Notes under the pieces: generated by a model
What the model was told of the DNA's origin: nothing
The model's input: the letters and a program-made list of their open reading frames with translations, nothing else
Databases searched by the model: none
Shown here: positions 1,728-14,455 of the stretch, in pieces
Layout of the letters: every line of letters starts with the position of its first letter
How positions within the stretch are numbered: position 1 is the stretch's first letter
Translations under genes and position numbers: made by a program
Source of the DNA: Zobellia amurskyensis
GTDB lineage: Bacteria > Bacteroidota > Bacteroidia > Flavobacteriales > Flavobacteriaceae
DNA: 64,000 nt
Assembly (NCBI RefSeq): GCF_009725985.1
Contig: NZ_RCNR01000011.1
Location: 62,001 to 126,000 of the forward strand
Direction: 5' to 3'

Positions 1728-1804
<77 letters not shown>

Positions 1805-1816
1805 AAGTTTTATAGG

Positions 1817-1849
1817 GCTTCAAGAGTTTTTGACTTTTGAAGCTTTTTT
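1817..1849 (+). terminator. Rho-independent terminator after tRNA-Ala
   Basis: The 10-bp stem 1817-1826 / 1834-1843 (one G-U pair, 7-nt loop) is followed by six T residues (1844-1849), directly after the tRNA gene. Confidence 0.8.
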
Positions 1850-1850
1850 C

Positions 1851-1872
1851 ATTTGCACGCAATTTGCACGCA
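1851..1872 (+). repeat. Perfect 11-bp tandem duplication (ATTTGCACGCA x2)
   Basis: ATTTGCACGCA occurs twice back to back, directly after the tRNA-Ala terminator. Short direct repeats next to a tRNA 3' end can be integrase arm-type sites or an integration scar; that reading is inference. No integrase gene is present in the window. Confidence 0.6.
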
Positions 1873-2147
1873 AAACTGGTTTTAGATTAATTCTGGTATT
1901 ATTTGATACAAATTGGTTCATTTTGGTACTTCTCCAACCTTTAAAGAAGGTTTTTTCGTAAAATTTCTCAAATTTGGTGTTTCAATCTTCAATTTTAGAT
2001 TAAGGAATCTAAGTCCCATAAAAGGTTCATTAACGAGAATACTTAAAGAGACCAAGAAAAGGACAACCTGTGAATAAGAATTGTGAATTTAAATGCTTGT
2101 CCTAAAAATCGGCCATTTATGGGACTTGATTTCTTTAGAGATATGCA

Positions 2148-2303
2148 ATGAAAAGTTGCATTTACCCCAAAATAATCAGGGAAAATGGGTATCAATCGGT
2201 GGATTTACTAAGTCATGCAGACTTTTATCTTCGTTTTGGATACCTACCAGCTTATCAATTAAGAATCCAGGTTCCTTTTGAAATTCCGCCAGAAAACTGT
2301 TGA
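2148..2303 (+). pseudogene. Remnant of a YhbS-like GNAT acetyltransferase (C-terminal fragment)
   Basis: A 51-codon open stretch reads like the C-terminal third of a YhbS-type GNAT protein: the HADFYLRFGYLPAY segment followed by VPFEIPPEN resembles the family's conserved Y-Y-x-R-F-G-F and P-F-E-V-P-x-E stretches. The motif A part that binds acetyl-CoA is missing and no start-proximal half is seen upstream, so this is a fragment. A 62-codon frame at 2093-2281 overlaps it in another frame and is not a gene. The rest of 1873-2535 shows no coding sequence that I can support. The fragment fits a decayed, recombination-prone stretch behind the tRNA gene. Confidence 0.5.
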
Positions 2304-2535
2304 ACGAAGTCCAAGTTTACTTGGATATTTATAATTGACCTACAATGACATTTTTGACATTAAACAGCAGTCAAATACTACAATTCATACAGCAATTTCT
2401 GCAATAGACACAATTTTGCTCATTATAATCGAATGATTGTTGTAATATAAGTATGGCGATAAAATCCATTATCCAAATTTCATTCATGAATACCTTGTTA
2501 CCAAATTGTAGTTAATTATTTTAATAACAAAGCTA

Positions 2536-5500
2536 ATGAGACCATTCCAACCATTTCACCTTAATACTTGTTGTCTCAAATATCTTATTTCGAATATTCT
2601 ATTAATCAGTATATTGATTGTTAGTCTTTTATTACCTCAAAAAAGTCATGGTCAGGCATGTGTTGAACGTAAACCAATTTCAGTAGCTATAGCCATTGAT
2701 GTCTCGGGTAGCATGGTAGGTATAATGGATAATGCCCGTGATTTTGCCGTCGGACTTATTAATGGCCTTAATTCAACAGGGAATCTTAATGAAGTTGAAG
2801 TATTCCTATTCAATGGAACTGTACCTGCTTATCCACTACCGGGAGGAGAGTTTGTATGGGGAAATCCATCAAGTGCAGTGACTTGGCTTGGTGGACTCGA
2901 CGATTCTGATGCTTTTGGAGGAACAGCATTATTCGATGCTACCTATCTTGGTGCTAGCCTTGTGGTTTCAAGAAGTACATCAAATTTTAAACTTTTTGTT
3001 CTAGTAACGGACGGTGATGATAGCGGCTCGACACTAACCATAGGAGACGCAACTGCTGCCCTGAGCAGCTCAGGTCTTGTATCGCGATTGATCTTTATTG
3101 GTAACTCTTCATCGGGCGCCAATACCTTGAATTCCATGGCCAATGGGGCTGGGTCTGGAAGTATAGCTGTTAATTCAACCCCTGGGGACCTAAATAGTTT
3201 AATATCGAGCATTGTGGACGCCACTTGTATTAACCATTCACCTGTGGCAAATTTTACTATATCTGATAGTGACCTTAATCTGTGCACGGATGGGAGCAGT
3301 ATAACCTTTAATGGAAGTGGTTCGAATGATGAAGAAACATCTTCAAATTCTTTAGATTATGAATGGACGATATCACGCCCAGATGGTTCCAATCTTAATC
3401 GTACGGGGAGAATACTTACGGAGAACTTCGATGACAGTCAACTTAATTCAGGTACGGGGTGGGGAGTATCCCTAACCGTTAGAGATGCAAAAAATGTACC
3501 TAGTAGTCCTTCCTTCAGCAGTTTCTCAGTGGTTGGAGGACCTCCAGACATTACTCTTTCTGCCAACCCATCTAATCCGTTTGATGCAAACATTACCGGT
3601 AGTCTGGAAGCCACACCAACTAACGATTGTGATGGTGGAGGTGCCATGAATTTCCAATGGACAGTGCTCAATGGGCCATCAGGAGGTGTTGAACCCAATC
3701 CATTGAATACTCCTGTAATTTCAATATCTGGTCTGGAAGAGAATATTACAACTTATACAGATGGTACAGACTTCCGTACACCATGGCATTTTCAATGTAC
3801 TGCTACTGATAATGAAAATGATTCAGATACAGAGGAAATCACTCTTCGTATCTATAATATTCCACCAGATATCAATTTTATTGGCGATACTGAGCTTGAT
3901 ATTTTTTTTCCAATTCAGGTCGGAACAGATATTTTAAATGATGATGATGGCGGTGCACTAACCTTTTCTTGGGATATAGTTCAAGCGCCGAATTCATCTT
4001 CCACGAATATTGTCGATGGTTTTTCTACAGGTCCGGATTTTATTTTTTCCACTGATGATACCGATCCAGGTACTTGGCGATTAAGACTTACGGCCACGGA
4101 TAATGAAGGAGAGGAGTACGAAGACTATATTTCAGTCCTTGTTGATGGACCACCAAATGCCGAAATAACGGGCCCATTTACCCCAATAGGCACGATTTTT
4201 GGATTCCCGTTAACACTTGATGGAAATCAATCATATGATCCAGATACTCGCAATGATTTACCCAATAATGGTCATAGTACCTCCGATCCTCCTATACAGG
4301 ATATTTCCCAAGGCATTGTATCGTATTCTTGGTCTCTTATTGACGCACCCTATGATAATCCAAATCTTTTCGCTCTAGGGAGGGTTGATGAAGTTCTGGG
4401 AATCAACAGTTCAGGTCCTACTTTAACAATCCCTTTTGCAAAGCGATTGACAGCGGGATTTTATACATTTCTTTTAGAGGTTGAGGATGGTGAAGGGAAT
4501 CTTGATTCTGAAGAATTCCAAATTGAGGTAATTGAAGAAGAAAGTAGGCCACTAGGCTTTATAATTCCACCGCAACAGACACATTTCGTAGATGAATTAA
4601 CCAACGTTACGGCAAACGACATAAAAGTCTATGGTGGATTGAGTTTTGATCCAGATAATCTTCTTAGTTCACCCATTTCGGAAGGCATTGATAATTTCAC
4701 CTGGTCGTATCAATATTTACCTTCGGGGTGCCTCACACCACCTGTATTACCAAGTGGCCCCGGGGCATTTGAGGCAGTCTTATATGCTGCCGGTAGCATA
4801 GTGCCACTTGAGTGCCAAGGACTATATCAGATTACGCTTGAAGTCATTGATGATGATCCCATCCCTAAGAGCAATCAACCTTTAGCAACAGCTGTAATTT
4901 CTATTGGCAATTGTCCTACTAATTTATGTATTGATTACCCCACCACTATTGCACCTGTTCCAATTCAATTCACCGAAGATACCGATGTGAGCATTTACTT
5001 TCATTTAAACTCAGTTCTATATGAAGATCCTCTAGCCATTTTAGGAACAGTTGCTAAACTTGAGATTTTTTATGAGAGTGAAATGGCACCCTTTTATACT
5101 GCCGAAGATCCCAATTTATTGGCTACTAACTTCGGTGGACTCCTTTCATTTCAATGGAATGGTTATGGCGATTTAAATCAACGACCAGATTCGGGTAAAT
5201 ATCATGTCAAAATTACTTTGCTCGATCAATCAGTAATGTCTATGATTGGAGGTGATGATGAATTGAATGCTATATTAATTGCAGTTGCTGATCCTGCTAT
5301 AGACCCAACTACAGACGAACTTATTGCAAGAGAAAAGTTAATCGCCAGTACCGATCAACTTGATGTCAATTACTCCATTACCGGTGGAGGAATTCCTGAT
5401 GAACTGCGCTGGCGGATATTTGATGCAGGCAATGCTGAAGTGGCTTCAGGCGCTATTCCCTCTCCACCAAATTCAGGAAACTTCAGCTGGAATGGTCAAA

Positions 5501-7656
5501 ACACTGTACCAGAGGTGGTGCCAGCAGGTGATTATGAATTGGAAATCGAAACTTTTCAATTAGGATCATCTATGGGTAAAAGTGCCCGTCATCCAGTTAC
5601 TATATTCAAATGTGATCTCGACAGTGATACTAATCGAAATGGAACTATTGACGATGTGGCAGATGAAATAAACGAGGAGAACTATACCGTTGTTTCTGGT
5701 TCAATTTTCAATGTAAACTACGATCGTGATGGAAGCCGAACTCAGGGAGGAATGCCAATAAATGATGTCCTATTCATTGATAATAGTGGTACACCTACTA
5801 ATGAAGATAAAGATATTGACAATGCTGCGGACGAAGCCGATATTACACCTTTGGTGATACGAAAAATTATGAATGACATACCTCCGACAATCAATGTATA
5901 TTTAAAAGTTGCAGAGCTTGAAGACATTCAATCGATTCATATGTTTAAATCAATAGCGGCTGGTGAGACTGCTATCTGGGGGGGGTTAGGATCTAGAGTT
6001 ATAGGAGATCCGGATGAGCCTCTTGAAATTGACATTACCTCATGGGTTAATCCTACTGACCCTGCTTATGCTTGTGACCCTGTTTCAGGGGATTGTACAT
6101 TTGGCATAGAAGGCATGTTTTTTCGTAACACAGGTCTTGTAAATCTCTTTGATGGCATTATCGATTTAACCCTTGAAGTTCGTGAGGGAGCAACAGTATT
6201 GTCGAGTGATGAAATTCAACTAAAAGTGGCACCATATCTAATGCTTTCACACCTGCAAGGTTCGACTGCGGTTTGGGTAAAAGATGGAGGAGCCTTAAAT
6301 GTGGAAATGCGGGAAACAGCCAGTGCTGATCCAGGATACTTTGCACTCGAAAATAGTGGCCAATTGCAGGAAGTTACTGATGCAGTATTGGCCGGGAACC
6401 AATGGTTCCAAGACCATATGGAAGTAGGATATTATCAACGTCCTGGTGGCCCACCAAATCACATAATGTTACGTTTACCCTACGGTGCACAACCGAAATG
6501 GCCTAACTATAGTATATTAGGTCCAGGAACAGGTGACTTTCAATTGGGCGATGGGCTACCCGGGGGTGGTGCCGGAGATTTTGGTGGCAATTTAGAAATA
6601 TTACCGCCAAATGCGATAAATCCCAACGGTCGTGTGGTAATTGGAAGTACGCGAAGTGTGGAACTCTTTGATTTTCTTACTTCACAGGAATCACAAGACC
6701 CATTTACGGTAAATACTGCATGGCTGAGGGTTAGTCACGTGGATGAGATCTTCGGATTTACGAATAATCCTAATGAAATGATTGTAGCAAACCCTATAGA
6801 TTCTTACGCAATTCTGACATCCATACCTATAGCAGACCAAGGTAAATCAGTGTTCTTTGCAACGGGGAGCTCAATACCAGAATCTGGCGTAGTGACATCC
6901 GCTGCTATTGCCACTAATCGAATTAATACAGGTGTAGACCATACGGTTGGGTCAGCATGGGGATTTATCCGAATTTTTGAAGACGCTGGTAGTGGAGCTG
7001 CTGGGCAAGTAGCTCGCATTAGTATTTTGGATAATGGTCATATCCTAGTGGATAAAGTTTGGTTGGTTGGTTCACAAGTGCTTCCAATTGCAGATCCCTT
7101 AAACTATGGATTTTGGTTACACTCAACGTCGGAAGCACCTAACCAAGGTGATTGGTTTGTACCCCCAGATACCGGGGACAAATATGTATTGGTAGAAGGA
7201 ACTCGCGTCTGGAAAAATAACACACCGGCTATAATTACGGTACATGAGATATTGGCAGACAGTGAATTAGAAGATCTTAATCTTCTTGACATAGAACCTG
7301 AAATTGCTACTATCAGATCCAATATTGAAGCGGCCAATGGTGCTCCTATGAATTTTATTCAAGTACCTACCATTTATGTTGGTGATAGGATTGGATTCAG
7401 TTCGAACCGGTCTTGCGTGGCTCTTACGCCAGGTTTAGCAAACTTCCAACTTGTTAACGGAGTACCCTATTTCCCTAGACAATTTGGCCCGAAGGACGTG
7501 GCTAGTAATGATATTTTTGAAGATGCCGTAAGCGCGGTAGTGCCTGCTGCCTTGTTCACTGATGATTGGAATCTTTATCACCGTTTAGATGGTGAAGTGC
7601 ATTGCGGTACAAATGTTATTAGACTCTTTCCAGTATTTAACTGGTGGAATCCTTAA
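2536..7656 (+). CDS. Secreted vWA-PKD protein with C-terminal protein-arginine deiminase (PAD) domain
   Basis: A 1706-residue exported protein. A signal peptide covers about 1-40. A von Willebrand A domain (about 46-230) has a MIDAS motif DVSGS (D55, S57, S59). Several PKD/Ig-like repeats follow (about 234-790), then a FlgD-like beta stretch (to about 1025). The C-terminal ~680 residues resemble vertebrate PADIs. A PAD_M-like region starts near C1026 and includes the calcium-site-like NYDRD (1061-1065). The catalytic domain holds WFQDHMEVGY (D1293), HVDE (H1401, D1403) and GEVHCGTN (C1690), ending FNWWNP. These match D350, H471, D473 and C645 of human PAD4. Ca1 ligands Q349, E353 and E411 correspond to Q1292, E1296 and E1354. 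Predicted reaction: Ca2+-dependent conversion of protein arginine to citrulline. No T9SS C-terminal domain is evident, so its final location is open. It heads a cassette with the next two genes (26 and 12 bp gaps). Confidence 0.85.
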   Translation: MRPFQPFHLNTCCLKYLISNILLISILIVSLLLPQKSHGQACVERKPISVAIAIDVSGSMVGIMDNARDFAVGLINGLNSTGNLNEVEVFLFNGTVPAYPLPGGEFVWGNPSSAVTWLGGLDDSDAFGGTALFDATYLGASLVVSRSTSNFKLFVLVTDGDDSGSTLTIGDATAALSSSGLVSRLIFIGNSSSGANTLNSMANGAGSGSIAVNSTPGDLNSLISSIVDATCINHSPVANFTISDSDLNLCTDGSSITFNGSGSNDEETSSNSLDYEWTISRPDGSNLNRTGRILTENFDDSQLNSGTGWGVSLTVRDAKNVPSSPSFSSFSVVGGPPDITLSANPSNPFDANITGSLEATPTNDCDGGGAMNFQWTVLNGPSGGVEPNPLNTPVISISGLEENITTYTDGTDFRTPWHFQCTATDNENDSDTEEITLRIYNIPPDINFIGDTELDIFFPIQVGTDILNDDDGGALTFSWDIVQAPNSSSTNIVDGFSTGPDFIFSTDDTDPGTWRLRLTATDNEGEEYEDYISVLVDGPPNAEITGPFTPIGTIFGFPLTLDGNQSYDPDTRNDLPNNGHSTSDPPIQDISQGIVSYSWSLIDAPYDNPNLFALGRVDEVLGINSSGPTLTIPFAKRLTAGFYTFLLEVEDGEGNLDSEEFQIEVIEEESRPLGFIIPPQQTHFVDELTNVTANDIKVYGGLSFDPDNLLSSPISEGIDNFTWSYQYLPSGCLTPPVLPSGPGAFEAVLYAAGSIVPLECQGLYQITLEVIDDDPIPKSNQPLATAVISIGNCPTNLCIDYPTTIAPVPIQFTEDTDVSIYFHLNSVLYEDPLAILGTVAKLEIFYESEMAPFYTAEDPNLLATNFGGLLSFQWNGYGDLNQRPDSGKYHVKITLLDQSVMSMIGGDDELNAILIAVADPAIDPTTDELIAREKLIASTDQLDVNYSITGGGIPDELRWRIFDAGNAEVASGAIPSPPNSGNFSWNGQNTVPEVVPAGDYELEIETFQLGSSMGKSARHPVTIFKCDLDSDTNRNGTIDDVADEINEENYTVVSGSIFNVNYDRDGSRTQGGMPINDVLFIDNSGTPTNEDKDIDNAADEADITPLVIRKIMNDIPPTINVYLKVAELEDIQSIHMFKSIAAGETAIWGGLGSRVIGDPDEPLEIDITSWVNPTDPAYACDPVSGDCTFGIEGMFFRNTGLVNLFDGIIDLTLEVREGATVLSSDEIQLKVAPYLMLSHLQGSTAVWVKDGGALNVEMRETASADPGYFALENSGQLQEVTDAVLAGNQWFQDHMEVGYYQRPGGPPNHIMLRLPYGAQPKWPNYSILGPGTGDFQLGDGLPGGGAGDFGGNLEILPPNAINPNGRVVIGSTRSVELFDFLTSQESQDPFTVNTAWLRVSHVDEIFGFTNNPNEMIVANPIDSYAILTSIPIADQGKSVFFATGSSIPESGVVTSAAIATNRINTGVDHTVGSAWGFIRIFEDAGSGAAGQVARISILDNGHILVDKVWLVGSQVLPIADPLNYGFWLHSTSEAPNQGDWFVPPDTGDKYVLVEGTRVWKNNTPAIITVHEILADSELEDLNLLDIEPEIATIRSNIEAANGAPMNFIQVPTIYVGDRIGFSSNRSCVALTPGLANFQLVNGVPYFPRQFGPKDVASNDIFEDAVSAVVPAALFTDDWNLYHRLDGEVHCGTNVIRLFPVFNWWNP

Positions 7657-7682
7657 TTAGTTAAAATGGAATACTCTTTGTA

Positions 7683-8534
7683 ATGAAATCAATAAATAAG
7701 AATAAGATGAATTTTTTTAGTTGCTCGCTTGTAGTATTTTTTCTGATTATTGGTGCTCAAACATTTGCGCAACCGACCGAACAAGTGTTGCCAGAGCTTA
7801 AAAATAACCTTGACCAGTCCTATAGCAATTTTGATAATGTAGCTCTTCAAAATCAAACCAGTAAGAGCTACGATAGTTTAGTTCGTGCCCTCGCTATAGA
7901 GGTACCTTCAGGAGCAACCTTTCAGGAAAACACTCTTGATAATAAACTTCTGGCAATTGCTCAATACCTAAAGCGTTTCCCTGAACGCTTTCAGGAGATT
8001 AAAAATACTTACATTTTGGGTGTGGATGACTATAGATTCCGGGTTCCTTCTTCCCCTCAAGTATCTGCCGCTCATGCCTCGGAGGATTACCGTCTGGTAT
8101 GGGAGTACTATCTATTAAAGCCATATACTAACCAGGGTTCTAATTTATATAAACAGCGAATCAATGAGGCCCTCGCACGAATCAACAATCCTAAATCTCT
8201 TTTTGCTTTGCAACATGCATATGCTAAAACTAGCGGGGCACCTTCAAGATACATAGGAACACTTGTTGCACAAAAAACATTAATGATTAACACCTTGGCC
8301 AGGATGCCTTCTGAAGCGAGCTTGAGCACCATGCTAGAGGTGGTAAGCTCTGATCTTACTACTAGTAAGGATAGCATAGCGTATTGGGATGCCAATAAAT
8401 ACCTAAAAGAGGTGTTGTCTGACACACCCATTTTAAAAAAATACAACTGGAACTCCATAATCAATAGTTTTAATACCACTAGATTGAATCCTTCTGCTCG
8501 CCAACTCTATGATCAAATTAAGTCTCAAAACTAA
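7683..8534 (+). CDS. Secreted protein of unknown function in the PAD cassette
   Basis: A 283-residue protein with a clear N-terminal signal peptide (hydrophobic SCSLVVFFLIIGAQ, probable cleavage after TFAQ near residue 30) and no recognisable domain. The mature part looks largely helical, rich in Asn, Gln, Ser and Leu, with no cysteines in obvious pairs and no transmembrane segment. It starts 26 bp after the deiminase gene and ends 12 bp before the outer-membrane barrel gene, so it is almost certainly translated from the same mRNA. A role as an adaptor, inhibitor or substrate of its giant neighbours is conceivable but not supported by any motif. ATG at 7683 is chosen because the signal peptide follows at once; the ATG at 7707 (MNFFSCS) is an alternative start. 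Confidence 0.75.
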   Translation: MKSINKNKMNFFSCSLVVFFLIIGAQTFAQPTEQVLPELKNNLDQSYSNFDNVALQNQTSKSYDSLVRALAIEVPSGATFQENTLDNKLLAIAQYLKRFPERFQEIKNTYILGVDDYRFRVPSSPQVSAAHASEDYRLVWEYYLLKPYTNQGSNLYKQRINEALARINNPKSLFALQHAYAKTSGAPSRYIGTLVAQKTLMINTLARMPSEASLSTMLEVVSSDLTTSKDSIAYWDANKYLKEVLSDTPILKKYNWNSIINSFNTTRLNPSARQLYDQIKSQN

Positions 8535-8546
8535 GGCCGACCCATT

Positions 8547-11500
8547 ATGAAAACCTCTCCATATTCTTATTTTATTTTCTTGGGCATTGTTTTGGCAAGC
8601 ATGCTACTTCATACAAATTCTGTTTTTGCTCAGTCCTTGGAATATGGCCCCCCCTATATCATACGGAATGGCAGTTTTCAACTAGTACAGGGTCTTTCCA
8701 TTGATGAGACCAATAATAAGGTGCTAATCGCCGATGCGTTGGAGCATAGTTATCATAAGACAGATTTCTCAGAACTTTTGCTTCCCATCCCAATTTTCAC
8801 CTCCCATGCTATCGTTTCAGACACGACGCTACCCGAAGCTTTATTAGAGCCTCAGGGCCTTACAGTAACTTCAAATCAACATGTTCTGATTGCTGACACC
8901 TTTCATAATCAGGTTAAACTATTTAGATGGAATGGAACTTCTTATTCATTTGATCCTATGTTTGCTTCTACCAATGCAACAATTGTGAATGGTACACCCA
9001 TTAGTCTACCACGTGATATAGCGATTGGTCCGGATGGTAAGATCTATTTATTAGATTCAGGTAACGACCGAATACTTGTAGCGGATAATGTAAATGATAC
9101 TTCATGGGCAGTTTGGTATGAAAACACCGATCTTGGTAATCCTTATGGTTTGGATATAGCCTCTGATAATTCTATCTATTTGGCAGATACTGATAACCAT
9201 CAAATTCTTCAAATCGATAGTGGTGGAACCATTACACGCACTATTGGTCATTATGGAACTGGTTATGTCCAGTTTCGAAGTCCTCGTGATGTGGCAGTTG
9301 ATTTAGATGGTAAAATATATATAGCTGACACGTACAATTATCGCGTGCAAATTCTAAAACCTGATGGGACCTATTATAAAACATTGGGTAAAGCTCCGCT
9401 ATATTCCTTTATACAAAAAATTGAAGTGGATGCTAATAAGAAAGTCTATGTGCTTGATTCGGGTAATGGTTCTTTAATCCATTTTCCCGGTCCAGGAGTC
9501 CCAAAACCATACGATGCTTATGTACGCGACTTTTCTGGTGACTATGGAGCAGAGCCCTCGAATCTAGCTTATTTACTTGATTCTCCTGATATACTGGTTC
9601 GTCATAATCCAGATGTAGACTTGGAACTCGCCTCAAATTTAGGGTTAGAAGCCTATGCCTTTCAACAGCCTAGATTTGATAGAAATAACTACGTGTATGT
9701 GGCCGTTAGGAATCGTGGTATACATCCGATAAACAATGTTGGGATGAAATTGTATTCCACAGACCCTGGTCTTCCGCTAGACTTTCCAGAGTTCTGGGAG
9801 ACCGAAGAATTTTATCTTAATTATACAAACTCTATCACTAATACACCTGGAAATAGCTGGAATATTGCTACAATAAATCCACCTGATTTATTACCTCCAT
9901 CAGAAATTGATAGTGTAATTATTGCGGGTCCGATAACTTGGAGACCTCCTGCACCGGAGACAACTTCGGATGCAGAGGGTAACTTATTCTTGCTCACTCG
10001 ACTATTACAACTTCAAGATCCTAGTGAAACGGCTAGTGGATTAGATCAGGTTACACTTAATAATAATGTGGCCTTACGACCTGTACAAGTAAGTCGTGGT
10101 CCATTTCCAATCGGAGATCAAAACACTTTAGTCATTGGTGCCAATTTTCCGGATATCAGTGGAAGCGTAGACGAGACCGAAGTAATGAACAAAGTTTTTG
10201 CTGCTGGAGACTGGATACAGGAAGTCAGTTATGGTCAGACAATCGTTAAACCGCAATTCGCTGGGGTTATTACCTTGGATAACAATCGCTCATTTTACGA
10301 ATTGGCAACAAATACAATGCTAGTAGAGATGGCAACAGAGGCCATTGGTAAAATCCTCACGACTCAACCAAATATACTCGACGGCCCTACTATGGACCCT
10401 GGAGACGACATTGACCGTATACTTATTGCTGTTAACGATTTAAGTTTGAACCGAGACTGGGCCACAACAGGCAAATGGAAATACGATGTTCCAGGACCGG
10501 AAGACAAGTATTTCACTGTATCGATACAAAGCCCTTCAAATACAGTTAATCAGTATTCCCATGGGCTTAGTCATCAGTTAGGGCTCATTGATCTTTATGC
10601 GTATCCAAATGTTTCTTTTCCAATTGACCATCCTGCAGATGAGTGGGATAATATGGCAAAGCCAATAGAAGGTGCACATCCCGTTGTGTGGAATAAAGAG
10701 AGAGCTACCTGGGTAACATCTCTAGGAGCAAAGATCCGATTTATACCACGTCCACCCGGTGGAACTTCATATGTAGGTAATACCACAGTCGATTTATATT
10801 ATCAATCTCAAGTGGATAGTGCCCAAGTGGGTGCCTTGGCCTTTGGCCTTACGGAAGGTATTACTTCCATGGCCCAAGAAACCCATTTTTATTTTGTAGA
10901 AGCTCGTAGCCCAGATCTGGGTAATGCTGATGCTACGGTTCCACAAGATGGAGTCATTATGTATTACGCCAATAATGAAATACCTCAAGGTCAGGTACCT
11001 GTAATTATTCGAGATCACACACCGGGTACTAATGTAATTTCGGATGCCGCCTTAGGAGTCAGTGATACAGAAAGTCCTGCTGGCACGGGAATTTCAGTTA
11101 CCGTACAATCTGAAATTACAGATCAGGGATATGTTATCAGTTTTGATTATACACCCCCTGCTACAGACTATGATCTAAATATCCAGAAGGGTGAACCTTT
11201 GTGGACCAGTGATGATATTTGGGTCGATAACCAGATTACAGGTGGAGGATATCATGCTTATGATCAAATCGCACAACAGTCTTCAGGTCCCGTAGATGAA
11301 GATCCGGTCGGGGGAGTGGAAAATAGAATTTATGCAAGAGTATATAACACGGGTCCGGCAACAGCATATGATTTTGAAGTTCAGTTCCATTTGTCAGATC
11401 CCTATCATACTGTAGACGGTGTAGGTAGTTTTGATTTATATAAATCAGTTTTGGTTGGTGAGCTCGCCCCAGACTCCTATAAAGATGTATATGTCGTTTG

Positions 11501-13127
11501 GGAACCATTAGAGGAAAATGACCCACATAGCTGTGTTAAAGTATATCTCAAAAGATTAACTAACGACACCAATTCAGGAAATAATAATGCTCAACAAAAC
11601 CTTCGGGTCATCAGTAGCGATCAGGCCAGTCCCTATCCAGAGGTAACCTTTAACTTTCAGGCAAGTAATGAACAATCACAACCCTTATTAGTATACTTCC
11701 AACTCGAGGGAATTCCAACAGATTGGACCTATCAGTTAACCCCTCGAAAAAAACTGCTGATTCCCGGTGAGCAAGTAATAGGCAGTCTTAAAGTAACACC
11801 TAAAGAAGGATATCCTGTTTGTACCAACCACGAGATAAACGTGACAGCTTGGATTCCTGAAGACCATACTTTAAAGCGTTTAGGCGGTACTACGGTAGAT
11901 TTACAGTTGAGAAACCGAACAGACATTAAAATGTCCGCTCGTTACTTAGATTGTAATCGTCGAAAGAAGATTACGGGTGAGGTAAGACGTTTAGACCAAC
12001 CTGAAACTACGGTAGGTAATGACCAGAACATGGTCCTAACTAATTACCAAACCGTATACCAAACTCCAGAGCGATACAAGTTATATCTGGAAAATTTATT
12101 TCAATTATTACAGGTAAAACCTTCTGAAGGAGAAGAACCAGTAGAAAAACCTATCCAACGCGGTTGTGCGGAGATTGTCGTAAATGGTTGTACTAATCCG
12201 GCAAGACCTAATGAAAAAATAACGATTAGTTATCAGGATCCTTCAGGTAATCCGGTATATAAAGAGGTGGTCACAGATCAAAATGGTTGTTTCCAAGATT
12301 TCCATGTTGTCATAGAAGGGGGAGATTGGGAAGTAGCGGCCTATTATCCAGGTGATGATTGCTCTGGCGCCACTACTATTGGGATACCTTTGGATATTCC
12401 TATCCCTAGAACTAGTGATCAAGACAATGATGGACTAGAGGATGACAATGAAATACATGGCGATGAGGATGGTGATGGAATTCCTAATCAACTTGATCGG
12501 GATAGTGATAACGACGGCATTATTGATGGTGAGGAACCTAACGGGGACCTTGACCAAGATGGCATTGACAATGTAGTTGACATTGATAGTGACGGCGACG
12601 GCATTATTGATGGAGAGGATAATCGTCCATACGAAGTGGACAAAATTGATGAGCACAAAGGGAATAATTACTATCACCTGTTTGCTGGTTTAATGTTATT
12701 TAATGATGACTTACCAATAAAGAATAATTTTGAATTAGGGCTTCGTTTTGGTCGTATAATCAGCCCTAAACTTTGGCTTGAGGCTGAATTAGGGCTAACC
12801 TTTACAGAAGATATAACCGGAAGTTCAGGTGAGGTTATTCAAGCTAATTTGAACTTATTACGGCGGTTCAATACACAAACCACACCTATTTTTGATCCAT
12901 ATTTGACAGGTGGTGCCGGTATTCTCTCATATAATGGATTCTCTGTTGGTAGCGATATAAGTCCTTCCTTAAATCTTGGTGGTGGCTTCTACACACGTGT
13001 AAGCAATGGCCTTACTCTACGTTTTGATAATCGTCTGTTCCTTACTAATGGAGATTTGAATCAGACTGGAACATTTTTCCACTACCAAGCAACTTTAGGA
13101 CTAGTATTCCATCGTTGGAGATTTTAG
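8547..13127 (+). CDS. Outer-membrane protein with NHL propeller, degenerate M6-like domain, Ca-type repeats and C-terminal barrel
   Basis: A 1526-residue exported protein. A signal peptide ends near residue 29 (VFAQ). NHL-type propeller repeats (about 45-315) show recurring DVAVDLDGKIYIADTYNYRV-like units. A CARDB-like stretch follows (about 350-470). Residues about 528-865 resemble M6/immune-inhibitor-A peptidases (SYGQTIVKPQF, then LGLIDLY), but the zinc site HExxH reads HGLSH (672-676), so the catalytic Glu is replaced by Gly and proteolysis is unlikely. More CARDB/Ig-like segments lead to Asp-rich thrombospondin-type-3 repeats (about 1290-1365) and a ~150-residue C-terminal outer-membrane beta-barrel ending in Phe (about 1372-1526). 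The barrel probably anchors the chain in the outer membrane; I infer that the propeller and the other domains face outward or interact with the deiminase. It is the last gene of the cassette. Confidence 0.8.
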   Translation: MKTSPYSYFIFLGIVLASMLLHTNSVFAQSLEYGPPYIIRNGSFQLVQGLSIDETNNKVLIADALEHSYHKTDFSELLLPIPIFTSHAIVSDTTLPEALLEPQGLTVTSNQHVLIADTFHNQVKLFRWNGTSYSFDPMFASTNATIVNGTPISLPRDIAIGPDGKIYLLDSGNDRILVADNVNDTSWAVWYENTDLGNPYGLDIASDNSIYLADTDNHQILQIDSGGTITRTIGHYGTGYVQFRSPRDVAVDLDGKIYIADTYNYRVQILKPDGTYYKTLGKAPLYSFIQKIEVDANKKVYVLDSGNGSLIHFPGPGVPKPYDAYVRDFSGDYGAEPSNLAYLLDSPDILVRHNPDVDLELASNLGLEAYAFQQPRFDRNNYVYVAVRNRGIHPINNVGMKLYSTDPGLPLDFPEFWETEEFYLNYTNSITNTPGNSWNIATINPPDLLPPSEIDSVIIAGPITWRPPAPETTSDAEGNLFLLTRLLQLQDPSETASGLDQVTLNNNVALRPVQVSRGPFPIGDQNTLVIGANFPDISGSVDETEVMNKVFAAGDWIQEVSYGQTIVKPQFAGVITLDNNRSFYELATNTMLVEMATEAIGKILTTQPNILDGPTMDPGDDIDRILIAVNDLSLNRDWATTGKWKYDVPGPEDKYFTVSIQSPSNTVNQYSHGLSHQLGLIDLYAYPNVSFPIDHPADEWDNMAKPIEGAHPVVWNKERATWVTSLGAKIRFIPRPPGGTSYVGNTTVDLYYQSQVDSAQVGALAFGLTEGITSMAQETHFYFVEARSPDLGNADATVPQDGVIMYYANNEIPQGQVPVIIRDHTPGTNVISDAALGVSDTESPAGTGISVTVQSEITDQGYVISFDYTPPATDYDLNIQKGEPLWTSDDIWVDNQITGGGYHAYDQIAQQSSGPVDEDPVGGVENRIYARVYNTGPATAYDFEVQFHLSDPYHTVDGVGSFDLYKSVLVGELAPDSYKDVYVVWEPLEENDPHSCVKVYLKRLTNDTNSGNNNAQQNLRVISSDQASPYPEVTFNFQASNEQSQPLLVYFQLEGIPTDWTYQLTPRKKLLIPGEQVIGSLKVTPKEGYPVCTNHEINVTAWIPEDHTLKRLGGTTVDLQLRNRTDIKMSARYLDCNRRKKITGEVRRLDQPETTVGNDQNMVLTNYQTVYQTPERYKLYLENLFQLLQVKPSEGEEPVEKPIQRGCAEIVVNGCTNPARPNEKITISYQDPSGNPVYKEVVTDQNGCFQDFHVVIEGGDWEVAAYYPGDDCSGATTIGIPLDIPIPRTSDQDNDGLEDDNEIHGDEDGDGIPNQLDRDSDNDGIIDGEEPNGDLDQDGIDNVVDIDSDGDGIIDGEDNRPYEVDKIDEHKGNNYYHLFAGLMLFNDDLPIKNNFELGLRFGRIISPKLWLEAELGLTFTEDITGSSGEVIQANLNLLRRFNTQTTPIFDPYLTGGAGILSYNGFSVGSDISPSLNLGGGFYTRVSNGLTLRFDNRLFLTNGDLNQTGTFFHYQATLGLVFHRWRF

Positions 13128-13844
13128 GTGGTTCATTCTCCCTTAAAAGTATAAAATATGGATTCTTTGTTCTCCGTGGAAATGAAACATTTTCTCAACA
13201 GAATTAATAACCGAAGTATCTTTTATTAATTGGAAATTCAATTGTAAGATTCAGTTTTTTTATTCTTTAACAGCACTATGAGTCATGGCATAAGATCTAC
13301 GACAAAAAAGTGCACATTAAACAATAAAACATCCGTTATAGTATGGTGCGGACAATGGCATCTGGAGAAACGCTATGTGAAATATATTCTTTCAAATCTT
13401 CATTTGTGTATTTGTTCCGAAAAACGAACGTTTTTTAAGACAACATTTTTACATGGAATGCCGATCTTTCCTCATTCACTAATAAAATATTGATCCATAA
13501 ATAGGATGACATAATTGTTAAAATCCGTCTTTTTAAAGTCCTTATTTTCCAATTCCTTTAGTTTTAATTGTTGATAACCCACAATTTTCTGCTAAATCAC
13601 GGATTAGACCCTTGTTTAGAATGGTGTCATTTGGTATCAAACGGAACCAAATAAAATTACTGGTCCTTTAGCACTATCTAGTTTGGTTCTATTTGGTTTA
13701 ATTTATTGTTTATCAGGTATTTGTGAATAACTATTTGTTACGGTCTATTTCTTTATTCGCCTATTTTCATACATTTATTCAACAATAATATTGAAGGAAA
13801 ACAAAAGCGCTTTTGTTCATTTCACATCCCTAAAAAGAAACAAA
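13128..13844. other. Long intergenic stretch with degenerate TTTGGTT repeats
   Basis: No convincing gene lies in these 717 bases; a 71-codon frame at 13278-13493 has no recognisable features. Short related words recur near the right end: ATTTGGTATCAAACGGAACCAAAT (13630-13653 in two halves) and TTTGGTTCTATTTGGTT (13682-13698). Similar words (TTTGATAC, TTGGTTCATTTTGGTAC) lie behind tRNA-Ala at 1901-1929. They may be remnants of integrase or plasmid-type binding sites, or AT-rich coincidence. Confidence 0.4.
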
Positions 13845-14114
13845 ATGGACAATTTTTTAATACTCGAACGGCTAGACCGTTTGGAAAGACTGTTGATTGC
13901 CAATAAAGAGGTACTGACCTTTGAGGAAACCTGCGACTATACCGGAATTTCCAGAAGCTATCTCTACAAACTTACCGCTGCGGGAACCGTTCCGCACTCC
14001 AAACCCAACGGAAAACTGATTTTTTTCGAAAGAAAGAAAATCGTCCGTTGGTTGCACCAGAACGAACGAAAACCTATACGGGAAATCGAAGTAATAGCGG
14101 AGCCTGTTCGTTAG
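13845..14114 (+). CDS. Excisionase-like helix-turn-helix protein (mobile-element type)
   Basis: From the ATG at 13845 the product is 89 residues: MDNFLILERLDRLERLL, then a winged-helix/HTH_17 (MerR/excisionase-like) domain with LTFEETCDYTGISRSYLYKLTAAGTVPHSKPNGKLIFF and a basic tail. This is the type of small DNA-binding protein found next to replication genes in Bacteroidota integrative and mobilisable elements, where it acts as excisionase or local regulator. A TTG at 13791 would extend the frame by 18 residues, but ATG 13845 gives the usual N-terminus. No integrase gene is present; together with the truncated primase gene just downstream this is best read as the leftover of an element. Confidence 0.75.
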   Translation: MDNFLILERLDRLERLLIANKEVLTFEETCDYTGISRSYLYKLTAAGTVPHSKPNGKLIFFERKKIVRWLHQNERKPIREIEVIAEPVR

Positions 14115-14200
14115 CTGATAGCAGGCGATACCATTTCCGGATTTTTTATCTACTCACTGTTACATCTTGGGAATCCCCTTGGTGTTCAAAATGTCATTAT

Positions 14201-14455
14201 ATGAAAACAGTACCGTACTTACGGGTGGGCACTTCGTACTATAAACTGGTGCAGGCACCGACCATCGCAGGCCATTTCAATGAAATCCTGGTTCATTGGA
14301 ATATCGAAACTATACGCCAAGACCATGGAAAGGATTACCTGGGCAAGGTTCCAAAACTTGTTAAATTATCCTGTTGGACAATCCTTTCATTTGTTTTTGT
14401 ATCCAGACTTTCTATATTTGCTGCTAGCAGAAAATTCCCAAAACAACAGAAGTGA
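14201..14455 (+). pseudogene. Truncated primase-helicase gene of an integrative element
   Basis: From ATG 14201 the translation begins MKTVPYLRVGTSYYKLVQ and continues through APTIAGHFNEILVHW and DHGKDYLGKVPK, which I recognise as the N-terminus of primase-helicase proteins of Bacteroidota integrative conjugative elements (normally several hundred residues). Similarity stops near base 14361, after which the frame runs 30 codons through unrelated sequence to a stop at 14455. The catalytic helicase part is gone. The remnant directly abuts the next locus, whose promoter (14390-14420) and GTG start (14452) lie inside the residual frame, so the junction of element and chromosome is probably near 14360-14390. 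Confidence 0.65.
14390..14420 (+). promoter_or_regulatory. Bacteroidota-type promoter for the zinc locus
   Basis: TTTG at 14390-14393, a 19-bp spacer and TATATTTG at 14413-14420 match the Bacteroidota sigma-factor consensus TTTG-N19-21-TAnnTTTG exactly. It lies about 30 bp upstream of the GTG at 14452. Confidence 0.6.

What the first reader, a model, noticed from the sequence alone, without database searches (positions are those of the whole stretch)
2536..7656. Vertebrate-type protein-arginine deiminase at the end of a giant vWA-PKD protein in a flavobacterium
The last ~680 residues align by eye with vertebrate PADIs, not with the agmatine-deiminase-like enzyme PPAD of Porphyromonas. D1293, H1401, D1403 and C1690 fall where human PAD4 has D350, H471, D473 and C645; Q1292, E1296 and E1354 match Ca1 ligands, and an NYDRD segment matches the PAD_M calcium site. 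The C-terminal GEVHCGTN and FNWWNP are very close to the PAD4 tail. Bacterial, mainly cyanobacterial, PADs are known, and vertebrate PADIs have been proposed to come from bacteria by transfer. Fusion to an N-terminal vWA domain and PKD repeats in a secreted Bacteroidota protein is an architecture I do not know as described. The usual PAD_N domain appears to be replaced by these adhesion modules.
Basis: partly seen in the sequence, partly recalled or inferred. Interest (0 to 1): 0.9.

Follow-up and report, generated by a model that had tools for sequence, protein, structure and literature searches.

The report
Giant arginine-modifying enzyme plus partner gene
A bacterium carries, on a stretch of DNA not found at that place in its sequenced sister species, a giant protein that looks exported and ends in the same kind of enzyme that turns arginine into citrulline in our own proteins; in other bacteria this enzyme often has a small helical protein encoded right behind it.

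Summary
Confirmed: the 1706-aa ORF at 2536-7656 ends in a PF03068 protein-arginine deiminase (PAD) with all four catalytic residues and a PAD4-like predicted fold. "Vertebrate-type" is not supported beyond "not Porphyromonas PPAD": in trees it pairs with a Verrucomicrobiota PAD (Roseibacillus), apart from human PAD4. It keeps calcium site 1 and most site 3-5 ligands, lacks the site-2 ligands and both substrate arginines (R372/R374), and has a ~120-aa insert in the catalytic domain. It is the only PAD among 778 genomes searched in its phylum, and lies on 12.55 kb (1807-14356) behind tRNA-Ala not found there in 8 congeners; one has a clean empty site.

Unexpected: the next gene (7683-8534) fills a slot that in 18 of 36 bacterial PAD loci holds a small alpha-helical, often HEAT-like protein. 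A profile of nine such partners found the PAD-adjacent gene in 15 of 22 planctomycete PAD loci not used to build it (17 with an enlarged profile). The window's partner resembles Roseibacillus's (reciprocal best hit) but is not significantly linked to the wider family. No paper listed in my searches describes the pairing. Activity and the partner's role are untested; regulator, immunity protein and subunit remain open.

The parts
1729..1803 (+). tRNA-Ala (GGC); left flank of the insert
   Evidence: ARAGORN and Rfam; GNAT-Usp-tRNA flank present in the window's genome and in 8 of 8 congeners
1807..14356 (.). stretch (12.55 kb) holding the PAD gene, the partner gene, the third gene and an HTH_17 gene, not found at this place in congeners
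   Evidence: congener G775 (L079) runs from window 1806 to window 14357 with 51 bases between; in none of 8 congeners does the roughly 11 kb behind the tRNA match 1863-14356 (junctions); no PAD in the other 8 species of the genus
2536..7656 (+). 1706-aa modular protein, predicted exported, with C-terminal PAD
2536..2652 (+). N-terminal hydrophobic export signal (residues 1-39; boundary by eye)
   Evidence: hydropathy peak 3.2
2683..3198 (+). vWA domain (residues 50-221)
   Evidence: Pfam VWA 5.3e-7, 30.5 bits against cut-off 23.8
3232..3504 (+). PKD-like module (residues 233-323)
   Evidence: PF18911, E 5e-6, 26.9 bits against cut-off 27, just under
3937..4143 (+). PKD module, K319L-like (residues 468-536)
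   Evidence: PF22352 2e-10
4210..4530 (+). REJ-like module (residues 559-665)
   Evidence: PF02010 1.3e-7
5398..5550 (+). FlgD Ig-like module (residues 955-1005)
   Evidence: PF13860 6.6e-6 in the whole protein, under the cut-off; 2.9e-7, over it, in a segment
5602..6150 (+). PAD middle domain (residues 1023-1205) with the N1061-Y-D1063-R-D1065 calcium segment
   Evidence: no Pfam PAD_M hit
6175..7653 (+). PAD catalytic domain (residues 1214-1706)
   Evidence: PF03068, AlphaFold2 model pTM 0.75, PAD4 best match E 3e-34, TM 0.63/0.69
6412..6414 (+). catalytic D1293 (PAD4 D350)
6736..6744 (+). catalytic H1401 and D1403 (PAD4 H471, D473)
6841..7221 (+). about 120-aa extra stretch in the catalytic domain (residues ~1436-1562), shared with Roseibacillus L003; limits approximate
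   Evidence: no Pfam match; low model confidence there
7603..7605 (+). catalytic C1690 (PAD4 C645)
7683..8534 (+). u283: 283-aa partner, predicted exported and helical; 26 bases lie between the PAD stop and its start
   Evidence: helices only from a low-confidence model
8547..13127 (+). third gene of the run: NHL repeats, CARDB, weak M6-protease-like domain, TSP3-type repeats, C-terminal outer-membrane beta-barrel
   Evidence: TSP3 repeats read by eye
13791..14114 (+). HTH_17 (excisionase-type) gene near the right end of the insert, perhaps a mobile-element remnant
   Evidence: PF12728 1.6e-10

Best explanation
The gene encodes an exported, modular protein-arginine deiminase. vWA and PKD-like modules hold or position it outside the inner membrane, and the C-terminal PAD_M-PAD_C pair is expected to convert arginine in peptides or proteins to citrulline by the Cys/His/Asp/Asp mechanism of the family, with calcium at sites 1 and 3-5 building the active site. 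It belongs to a divergent Bacteroidota/Verrucomicrobiota branch with a rebuilt substrate loop (an LPYG motif in place of the site-2/R372-R374 loop) and an extra stretch in PAD_C, so its substrate range probably differs from that of PAD4. It is made with a small, predicted exported helical protein from the next gene, which I read as a dedicated partner that binds and controls the PAD. The cassette was probably gained horizontally behind tRNA-Ala. Shown here: family, predicted fold, residues, branch, empty site, gene order. Inferred: export, activity, calcium dependence, transfer, what the partner does.
For: PF03068 6e-42; PDB hits only to PADs; a profile of 25 bacterial PAD domains (window and 24 of the 36 loci) finds PAD4 at 5e-158; model pTM 0.75 and Foldseek best match PAD4 E 3e-34. 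Catalytic tetrad in 28 of 28 aligned rows and 46 of 46; rows were picked with the help of the HxDE and HC motifs, so for H, D and C this is partly by construction. Groups with Roseibacillus at 100/99 in both trees. One PAD among 778 genomes of its phylum, handles G000-G777. Empty site in G775. Partner slot: small co-directional adjacent gene in 18 of 36 PAD loci; leave-one-out profile of 9 core partners finds 8 of 9 at rank 1 (E 1e-12 to 7e-4) against 1121 other ORFs (best E 0.24); the 9-protein profile finds the adjacent gene in 15 of 22 planctomycete PAD loci (E 4e-7 to 0.004; next ORF 0.12), 17 of 22 with the enlarged profile. u283 and the Roseibacillus gene in the same slot are reciprocal best hits (E 0.016, 0.0053); none of 1000 shuffles reached their Smith-Waterman score.
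Against: No activity data. Both arginines that bind the substrate backbone in PAD4 are missing, whereas Cummings et al. report substrate-binding residues conserved in all PADs they compared, so peptidyl-arginine may not be the substrate. No type-9 sorting domain on the PAD although the genome has 21 matches to that domain, 19 over its cut-off: the final location is unknown. u283 is not detected by the wider partner profiles (E 0.41), has no HEAT hit, and its model is unusable (pLDDT 46). By a simple hydropathy rule 3 of 17 PAD/partner pairs disagree on an export signal (L004, L005; L019 borderline). 18 of 36 loci and 5 of 22 planctomycete loci show no such partner. The G+C of the insert (0.399) does not differ from the rest (0.391), so composition does not support transfer.
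Confidence: 0.62

Rival explanations
1. Polymorphic-toxin or effector reading: the PAD is the C-terminal warhead of a secreted multi-domain protein aimed at other cells and u283 is the immunity protein that keeps it silent in the producer.
For: Catalytic domain at the very C-terminus of a large modular protein with a predicted export signal, small gene directly behind it; PAD and partner agree on the presence or absence of an export signal in 14 of 17 pairs; two tandem partner-type genes in L014; variable tRNA-linked location.
Against: No toxin-delivery domain among the hits; many partnered PADs are stand-alone enzymes of about 460-780 aa with partners of the same kind; no ORF in the six Streptomyces loci (L011, L018, L020, L021, L022, L028) was found by the partner profile (all were among the 1121 other ORFs, best E 0.24); only one listed paper held both 'polymorphic toxin' and 'deiminase' (listing only).
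Confidence: 0.2
2. Deiminase of something other than protein arginine (free arginine, C-terminal arginine, agmatine-like or other guanidino groups), used for nitrogen or cell-envelope modification.
For: Loss of both PAD4 substrate arginines and of the site-2 loop, replaced by a motif shared with Roseibacillus; extra stretch in the catalytic domain.
Against: Catalytic residues, W1290 and V1399 are kept; fold matches are PADs; several other bacterial PADs also lack one or both arginines in the alignment.
Confidence: 0.13
3. Inactive passenger: a transferred PAD domain serving as a binding or structural module.
For: Rare, patchy, strongly diverged (end branch 0.95); site 2 and substrate arginines gone.
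Against: Tetrad and side-chain ligands of site 1 intact, long intact frame.
Confidence: 0.05

Closest known systems
Verrucomicrobiota PAD of Roseibacillus ishigakijimensis (L003, NZ_JAENIO010000004.1)
   Same: 33% identity over PAD_M and PAD_C, same extra stretch, LPYG loop, small gene with a signal-like N-terminus directly downstream
   Different: TSP3-type repeats (PF18884, under its cut-off) in the part of the N-terminus that is on the contig, whose end cuts the gene; F in place of W1290; no gene like the window's third one behind it
Human PADI4 / cyanobacterial cyanoPADI (clade Ai of Cummings et al. 2021, PMC8826395)
   Same: fold, catalytic tetrad, side-chain ligands of calcium site 1 and most of 3-5 (compared with PAD4, no cyanobacterial sequence was at hand)
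   Different: no PAD_N hit, no calcium site 2, glycine at the D388 place, R372/R374 missing, separate place in the trees
Two-domain bacterial and fungal PADs (Streptomyces and others)
   Same: PAD_M + PAD_C without PAD_N, site 2 absent
   Different: window protein has neither substrate arginine and has a large extra stretch; no ORF in the six Streptomyces loci was found by the partner profile; no fungal sequence was compared here
Porphyromonas PPAD (agmatine-deiminase-like)
   Same: citrullinating enzyme of a bacterium (Cummings et al., passages); same phylum (recalled)
   Different: different family; no PF04371 hit
HEAT-repeat proteins (PF13646)
   Same: 8 of 19 PAD-adjacent proteins match HEAT_2 at E up to 0.1
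   Different: u283 does not match

Membership tests
PF03068 protein-arginine deiminase | profile match over curated cut-off | tested here: met
   144.5 bits against 25
PF03068 protein-arginine deiminase | Asp/His/Asp/Cys catalytic tetrad | tested here: met
   D1293, H1401, D1403, C1690
PF03068 protein-arginine deiminase | PAD fold (predicted) | tested here: met
   PAD4 best Foldseek match, E 3e-34, TM 0.63/0.69
PF03068 protein-arginine deiminase | substrate-backbone arginines R372/R374 (recalled role) | tested here: not met
   no arginine aligned at either place; one or both also missing in some other bacterial PADs, so not a family-wide mark
PF03068 protein-arginine deiminase | calcium-dependent citrullination of peptidyl-arginine | not testable with these tools
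   needs an assay
Animal/cyanobacterial (clade Ai) PADI | calcium site 2 ligands and switch aspartate | tested here: not met
   H1294 and no D/S/N at the other three places; glycine at D388 in both alignments. At D388 several non-animal-type PADs, two Streptomyces among them, align an aspartate, so this column is a poor mark in my alignments
Animal/cyanobacterial (clade Ai) PADI | groups with PAD4 in a tree | tested here: not met
   no cyanobacterial sequence was in these trees
Animal/cyanobacterial (clade Ai) PADI | PAD_N domain | tested here: not met
   no Pfam hit; Pfam only
Porphyromonas-type PPAD | PF04371 match | tested here: not met
   absent (families up to E 0.1)
Type 9 secretion cargo | C-terminal sorting domain (TIGR04183) | tested here: not met
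   C-terminus is the PAD itself; no such NCBIfam hit; 21 matches in the genome
PAD-adjacent partner family (defined here) | adjacent co-directional small gene with profile similarity to other partners | tested here: inconclusive
   position met; similarity only to the Roseibacillus partner, not to the wider profile (E 0.41)
Polymorphic toxin system | delivery domain plus C-terminal toxin plus immunity gene | tested here: inconclusive
   order fits; no delivery domain among the hits; toxicity and immunity untested

The most novel reading that the evidence does not exclude
Most bacterial PADs outside Streptomyces and the animal-like type (18 of the 28 such loci and 17 of 22 planctomycete loci) are not lone enzymes but half of a two-gene module, PAD plus a dedicated helical partner, often of HEAT type, usually predicted for the same compartment, that holds the enzyme in check or gives it its target. 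The window carries a far-diverged form of this module that has moved into Bacteroidota on a tRNA-linked stretch, with a rebuilt substrate loop. That would be a built-in protein control of citrullination with no counterpart that I know of in the animal enzymes (recalled), and a possible source of natural PAD inhibitors.
Probability: 0.4. Interest if true: 0.78.

Novelty: new variant of a known kind. Interest (0 to 1): 0.62.

Why it matters
Human PADs are implicated in autoimmune disease and studied as drug targets, and most of their bacterial relatives seem unstudied (recalled, beyond cyanoPADI in PMC8826395). A gene kept beside bacterial PADs in several phyla gives a concrete hypothesis about how bacteria control citrullination, and perhaps protein inhibitors to test. 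The window adds a phylum (Bacteroidota, inferred) and a natural PAD without calcium site 2 and without the usual substrate arginines, useful for asking which of these features the reaction really needs. The 22 of 274 planctomycete genomes with a PAD widen the bacterial side of the debate on how animals got theirs.

Tried and rejected
Relatives on phages, plasmids or viral contigs: tblastn of the catalytic domain found nothing in 'phages' or 'plasmids'; two viral-contig scans found none. A PAD1 fragment found 3 Streptomyces plasmids. Cyanobacterial PADs were wanted for the trees; the one genome-contig scan (two short peptide patterns) returned none, so the animal-like type is represented only by PAD4 with L015 and L016.

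Target-site repeats at the insert: none convincing. G+C as sign of transfer: no difference. Folding u283 with its Roseibacillus relative: pLDDT 46, not used beyond 'helical'. Joining u283 to the wider partner family by profile-profile comparison: not significant; the core and myxobacterial groups likewise (E 0.049), although a myxobacterial profile finds the L019 partner at 2e-8; Thalassospira partners only weakly linked (E 0.0067). A HEAT label for u283: dropped. The third gene as part of a conserved module: its middle part gave only weak, short hits in 2 other genomes of 299, and the whole protein gave short hits in the repeat region (residues 1276-1392) in 7 of 8 congeners; dropped. u283 in 296 genomes of the phylum: only its own.

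Rows left out: the alignments and trees hold 24 of the 36 loci (L021, L022, L025, L026, L028, L030, L032-L036 and L038 not used) and 18 of 22 planctomycete loci (L113, L115, L129, L130 lacked the motif asked for; L129 and L130 have no HCG/HCA at the catalytic cysteine region). The 18 partner-type genes were picked by eye; L011 and L026 also have adjacent co-directional ORFs (173 and 317 aa) that looked unrelated, L015 a phosphatidylserine decarboxylase, L036 and L038 a clostripain. The L025 partner was left among the 1121 'other' ORFs by oversight; it scored no better than E 0.39 where shown.

Novelty searches (held papers only, capped listings): 10 of 34 shown; 15 of 437; 12 of 26. Read: PMC8826395 abstract, sections 6 and 9, and found passages; PMC11121387 found passages only.
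Full report
ORF 2536-7656 (+) is open from ATG to stop, 1706 aa. Pfam gives PAD PF03068 at 6e-42 (144.5 bits; cut-off 25) in two stretches, with K319L-like PKD, REJ, PKD_4 and FlgD_ig matches upstream (the last two just under their cut-offs there) and VWA at 5.3e-7 when residues 40-235 are scanned alone. Against the PDB only PADs are hit, best 4.9e-22. PAD_M is not reached by its Pfam model, but homology to the Roseibacillus protein runs over residues 1023-1705 at 33% identity, and the AlphaFold2 model of residues 1010-1706 (25-row alignment, mean pLDDT 70, pTM 0.75) has human PADs as the 50 best Foldseek matches shown, PAD4 first (E 3e-34, TM 0.63/0.69).

Residues. In an alignment with PAD4 (letters; site assignments recalled) the tetrad D1293/H1401/D1403/C1690 is kept, in 28 of 28 rows and 46 of 46. 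The rows were picked with the help of the HxDE and HC motifs, so for three of the four residues this is partly by construction; four planctomycete loci without the motif were left out, and two of them (L129, L130) seem to lack the histidine before the cysteine. Calcium site 1 keeps Q1292, E1296, L1353 and E1354, with G1350 in place of F407 (F407 and L410 bind by backbone, recalled). Most ligands of sites 3-5 are kept (N1061, D1063, D1065, D1091, D1099, D1102, E1192), with T1088 at D165, D1093 at E170 and G1331 at D388. Site 2 is gone (H1294 at E351; no D/S/N at the other three places). No arginine aligns with R372 or R374; W1290 and V1399 are kept. Roseibacillus shares the loss of both arginines and an LPYG motif in that loop. 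Cummings et al. 2021 (PMC8826395; abstract, sections 6 and 9, passages) state that sites 2 and 4 and the switch aspartate are exclusive to the cyanobacterial/animal clade, and that substrate-binding residues are conserved in all PADs they compared; the window protein departs from the second statement. In my alignments several other bacterial PADs, two Streptomyces among them, put an aspartate at D388, so that column does not separate the types here.

Place in the family. A genome-contig scan with an alignment of the domain and two human fragments gave 36 loci, the best being Roseibacillus (Verrucomicrobiota). In ML trees of 28 and 46 sequences (24 of those 36 loci; 18 of 22 planctomycete loci in the second) the window pairs with Roseibacillus (100/99 in both) and next with three more Verrucomicrobiota (97/95 and 93/95), while PAD4 pairs with L015 and L016 (100/99). 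The trees are unrooted, branches are long, and no cyanobacterial or fungal sequence is included. A census with PF03068 found the window's own PAD only: 1 of 397 (family), 1 of 395 (phylum sample), 1 of 9 (genus), together 778 genomes by handle, G000-G777. That the phylum is Bacteroidota is inferred from the genes and the type-9 sorting domains; no name is given. Verrucomicrobiota had 4 of 288, Planctomycetota 22 of 274. The window and Roseibacillus share an extra stretch of about 120 aa in PAD_C (residues ~1436-1562), without Pfam match and modelled with low confidence. Other PADs also have long stretches between the same landmarks (for example L012 242, L029 199, L014 185 residues against 222 in the window and about 110-120 in many), and L051 and L052 have extra sequence there by eye; kinship of these is not shown.

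Genomic setting. The GNAT-Usp-tRNA-Ala flank is present in 8 of 8 congeners, the PAD in none of them. In G775 the sequence passes from window 1806 to window 14357 with 51 bases between, so 1807-14356 is an insert here or a deletion there. In the other seven congeners different sequence follows the tRNA, and none of the roughly 11 kb taken from each matches 1863-14356: a variable spot. An HTH_17 gene lies near the right end. Composition does not differ and I found no target-site repeat. Gain by transfer is an inference from rarity and the empty site.

The partner gene. The next gene, 7683-8534, codes for a 283-aa protein with a signal-like N-terminus. Looking at other PAD loci I noticed a small co-directional gene of 193-350 aa directly behind the PAD in 18 of the 36 loci, starting within about 50 bases of its stop (picked by eye). 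HEAT_2 is found in 8 of 19 such proteins, u283 included in the 19 and not among the 8. I tested kinship. A profile of the conserved part of nine of them, leaving one out each time (both L014 copies together), found the left-out protein at rank 1 in 8 of 9 cases (E 1e-12 to 7e-4; L010 missed, rank 3, E 0.76) among 1121 other ORFs, whose best E was 0.24. A myxobacterial partner profile found the partner of L019 at 2e-8, but profile-profile comparison of the two groups was not significant (E 0.049). The nine-protein profile was then run on planctomycete PAD loci not used to build it. Of 22 loci (21 genomes), 18 were parsed at first (305 ORFs), and in 15 the adjacent gene was found at E 4e-7 to 0.0043, with the next ORF at 0.12. 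Of the four remaining loci an enlarged profile found the adjacent gene in two (9e-12, 2.8e-19; each searched alone); the ORF behind L130 gave 0.021 and was not counted, and L113 had no ORF there. So 17 of 22, the misses being L110, L112, L113, L116 and L130. By a simple hydropathy rule (cut at 2.0, set after seeing the values; best of several starts for the PAD) 14 of 17 pairs agree on the presence or absence of an export signal; L004 and L005 disagree and L019 is borderline. No ORF of the six Streptomyces loci or of L015 and L016 was found by the partner profile.

For the window itself the case is weaker. u283 and the Roseibacillus gene in the same slot are each other's best hit among about 1140 ORFs (E 0.016 and 0.0053); the pairwise BLASTP E is 3e-5, over 43 residues, and none of 1000 shuffles reached the score. 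The wider profile does not find u283 significantly (E 0.41), profile-profile comparison is negative and its model is unusable (pLDDT 46, helical). So same slot, similar size, one relative: a likely but unproven diverged member.

Mechanism. I read the system as an exported PAD whose vWA/PKD-like modules place it outside the inner membrane and whose helical partner controls it. The PAD lacks a type-9 sorting domain although the genome has 21 matches to that domain, 19 over the cut-off, so surface, periplasm and vesicles remain open. The toxin/immunity reading is the main rival; a different guanidino substrate is the second.

Novelty. PADs in bacteria are known, so the enzyme is a new variant of a known kind. 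Searches for PADs with Verrucomicrobi-, Planctomycet-, Flavobacteri-, HEAT repeat, immunity protein or polymorphic toxin showed no paper on such a PAD or pairing in what was listed (one search showed 10 of 34; one search found none). In PMC8826395 the main text has no occurrence of operon, HEAT, neighbo-, bacteroid-, planctomycet- or verrucomicrob-. Supplements and most subscription papers were not seen.

Noticed in passing
L037:8684-12235 (Enhygromyxa salina): PAD followed in the same frame by a ubiquitin carboxyl-terminal hydrolase domain (PF00443, 3e-19), a eukaryote-type pairing in a myxobacterium.
   Followed up: no
L036:11063-12448 and L038:7823-9310 (Ozemobacter relatives): Gene directly behind the PAD is a clostripain-family peptidase (PF03415), a family known for arginine specificity (recalled).
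   Followed up: no
L090-L108, L109-L130: 22 of 274 planctomycete genomes carry a PAD, not far from the 11% given for cyanobacteria in PMC8826395; that paper's main text does not name the phylum.
   Followed up: partly
L014:2182-4167: Two similar partner-type genes in tandem behind one PAD.
   Followed up: no
window 8547-13127, about 10197-10727: Weak M6-protease-like domain in which a stretch reads HGLSH, without the glutamate of HExxH, so perhaps inactive; read by eye.
   Followed up: no
window 1729-1806 and L078-L085: Downstream side of tRNA-Ala(GGC) differs between congeners: a variable insertion spot.
   Followed up: partly
L051, L052, L014: Verrucomicrobiota PADs with a stretch inside PAD_C that resembles domains of phage tail proteins by eye (recalled pattern), at about the place of the window's extra stretch.
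   Followed up: no
L129, L130: Two planctomycete PAD-family proteins whose catalytic end reads DCG and RCG in place of HCG, perhaps altered enzymes.
   Followed up: no
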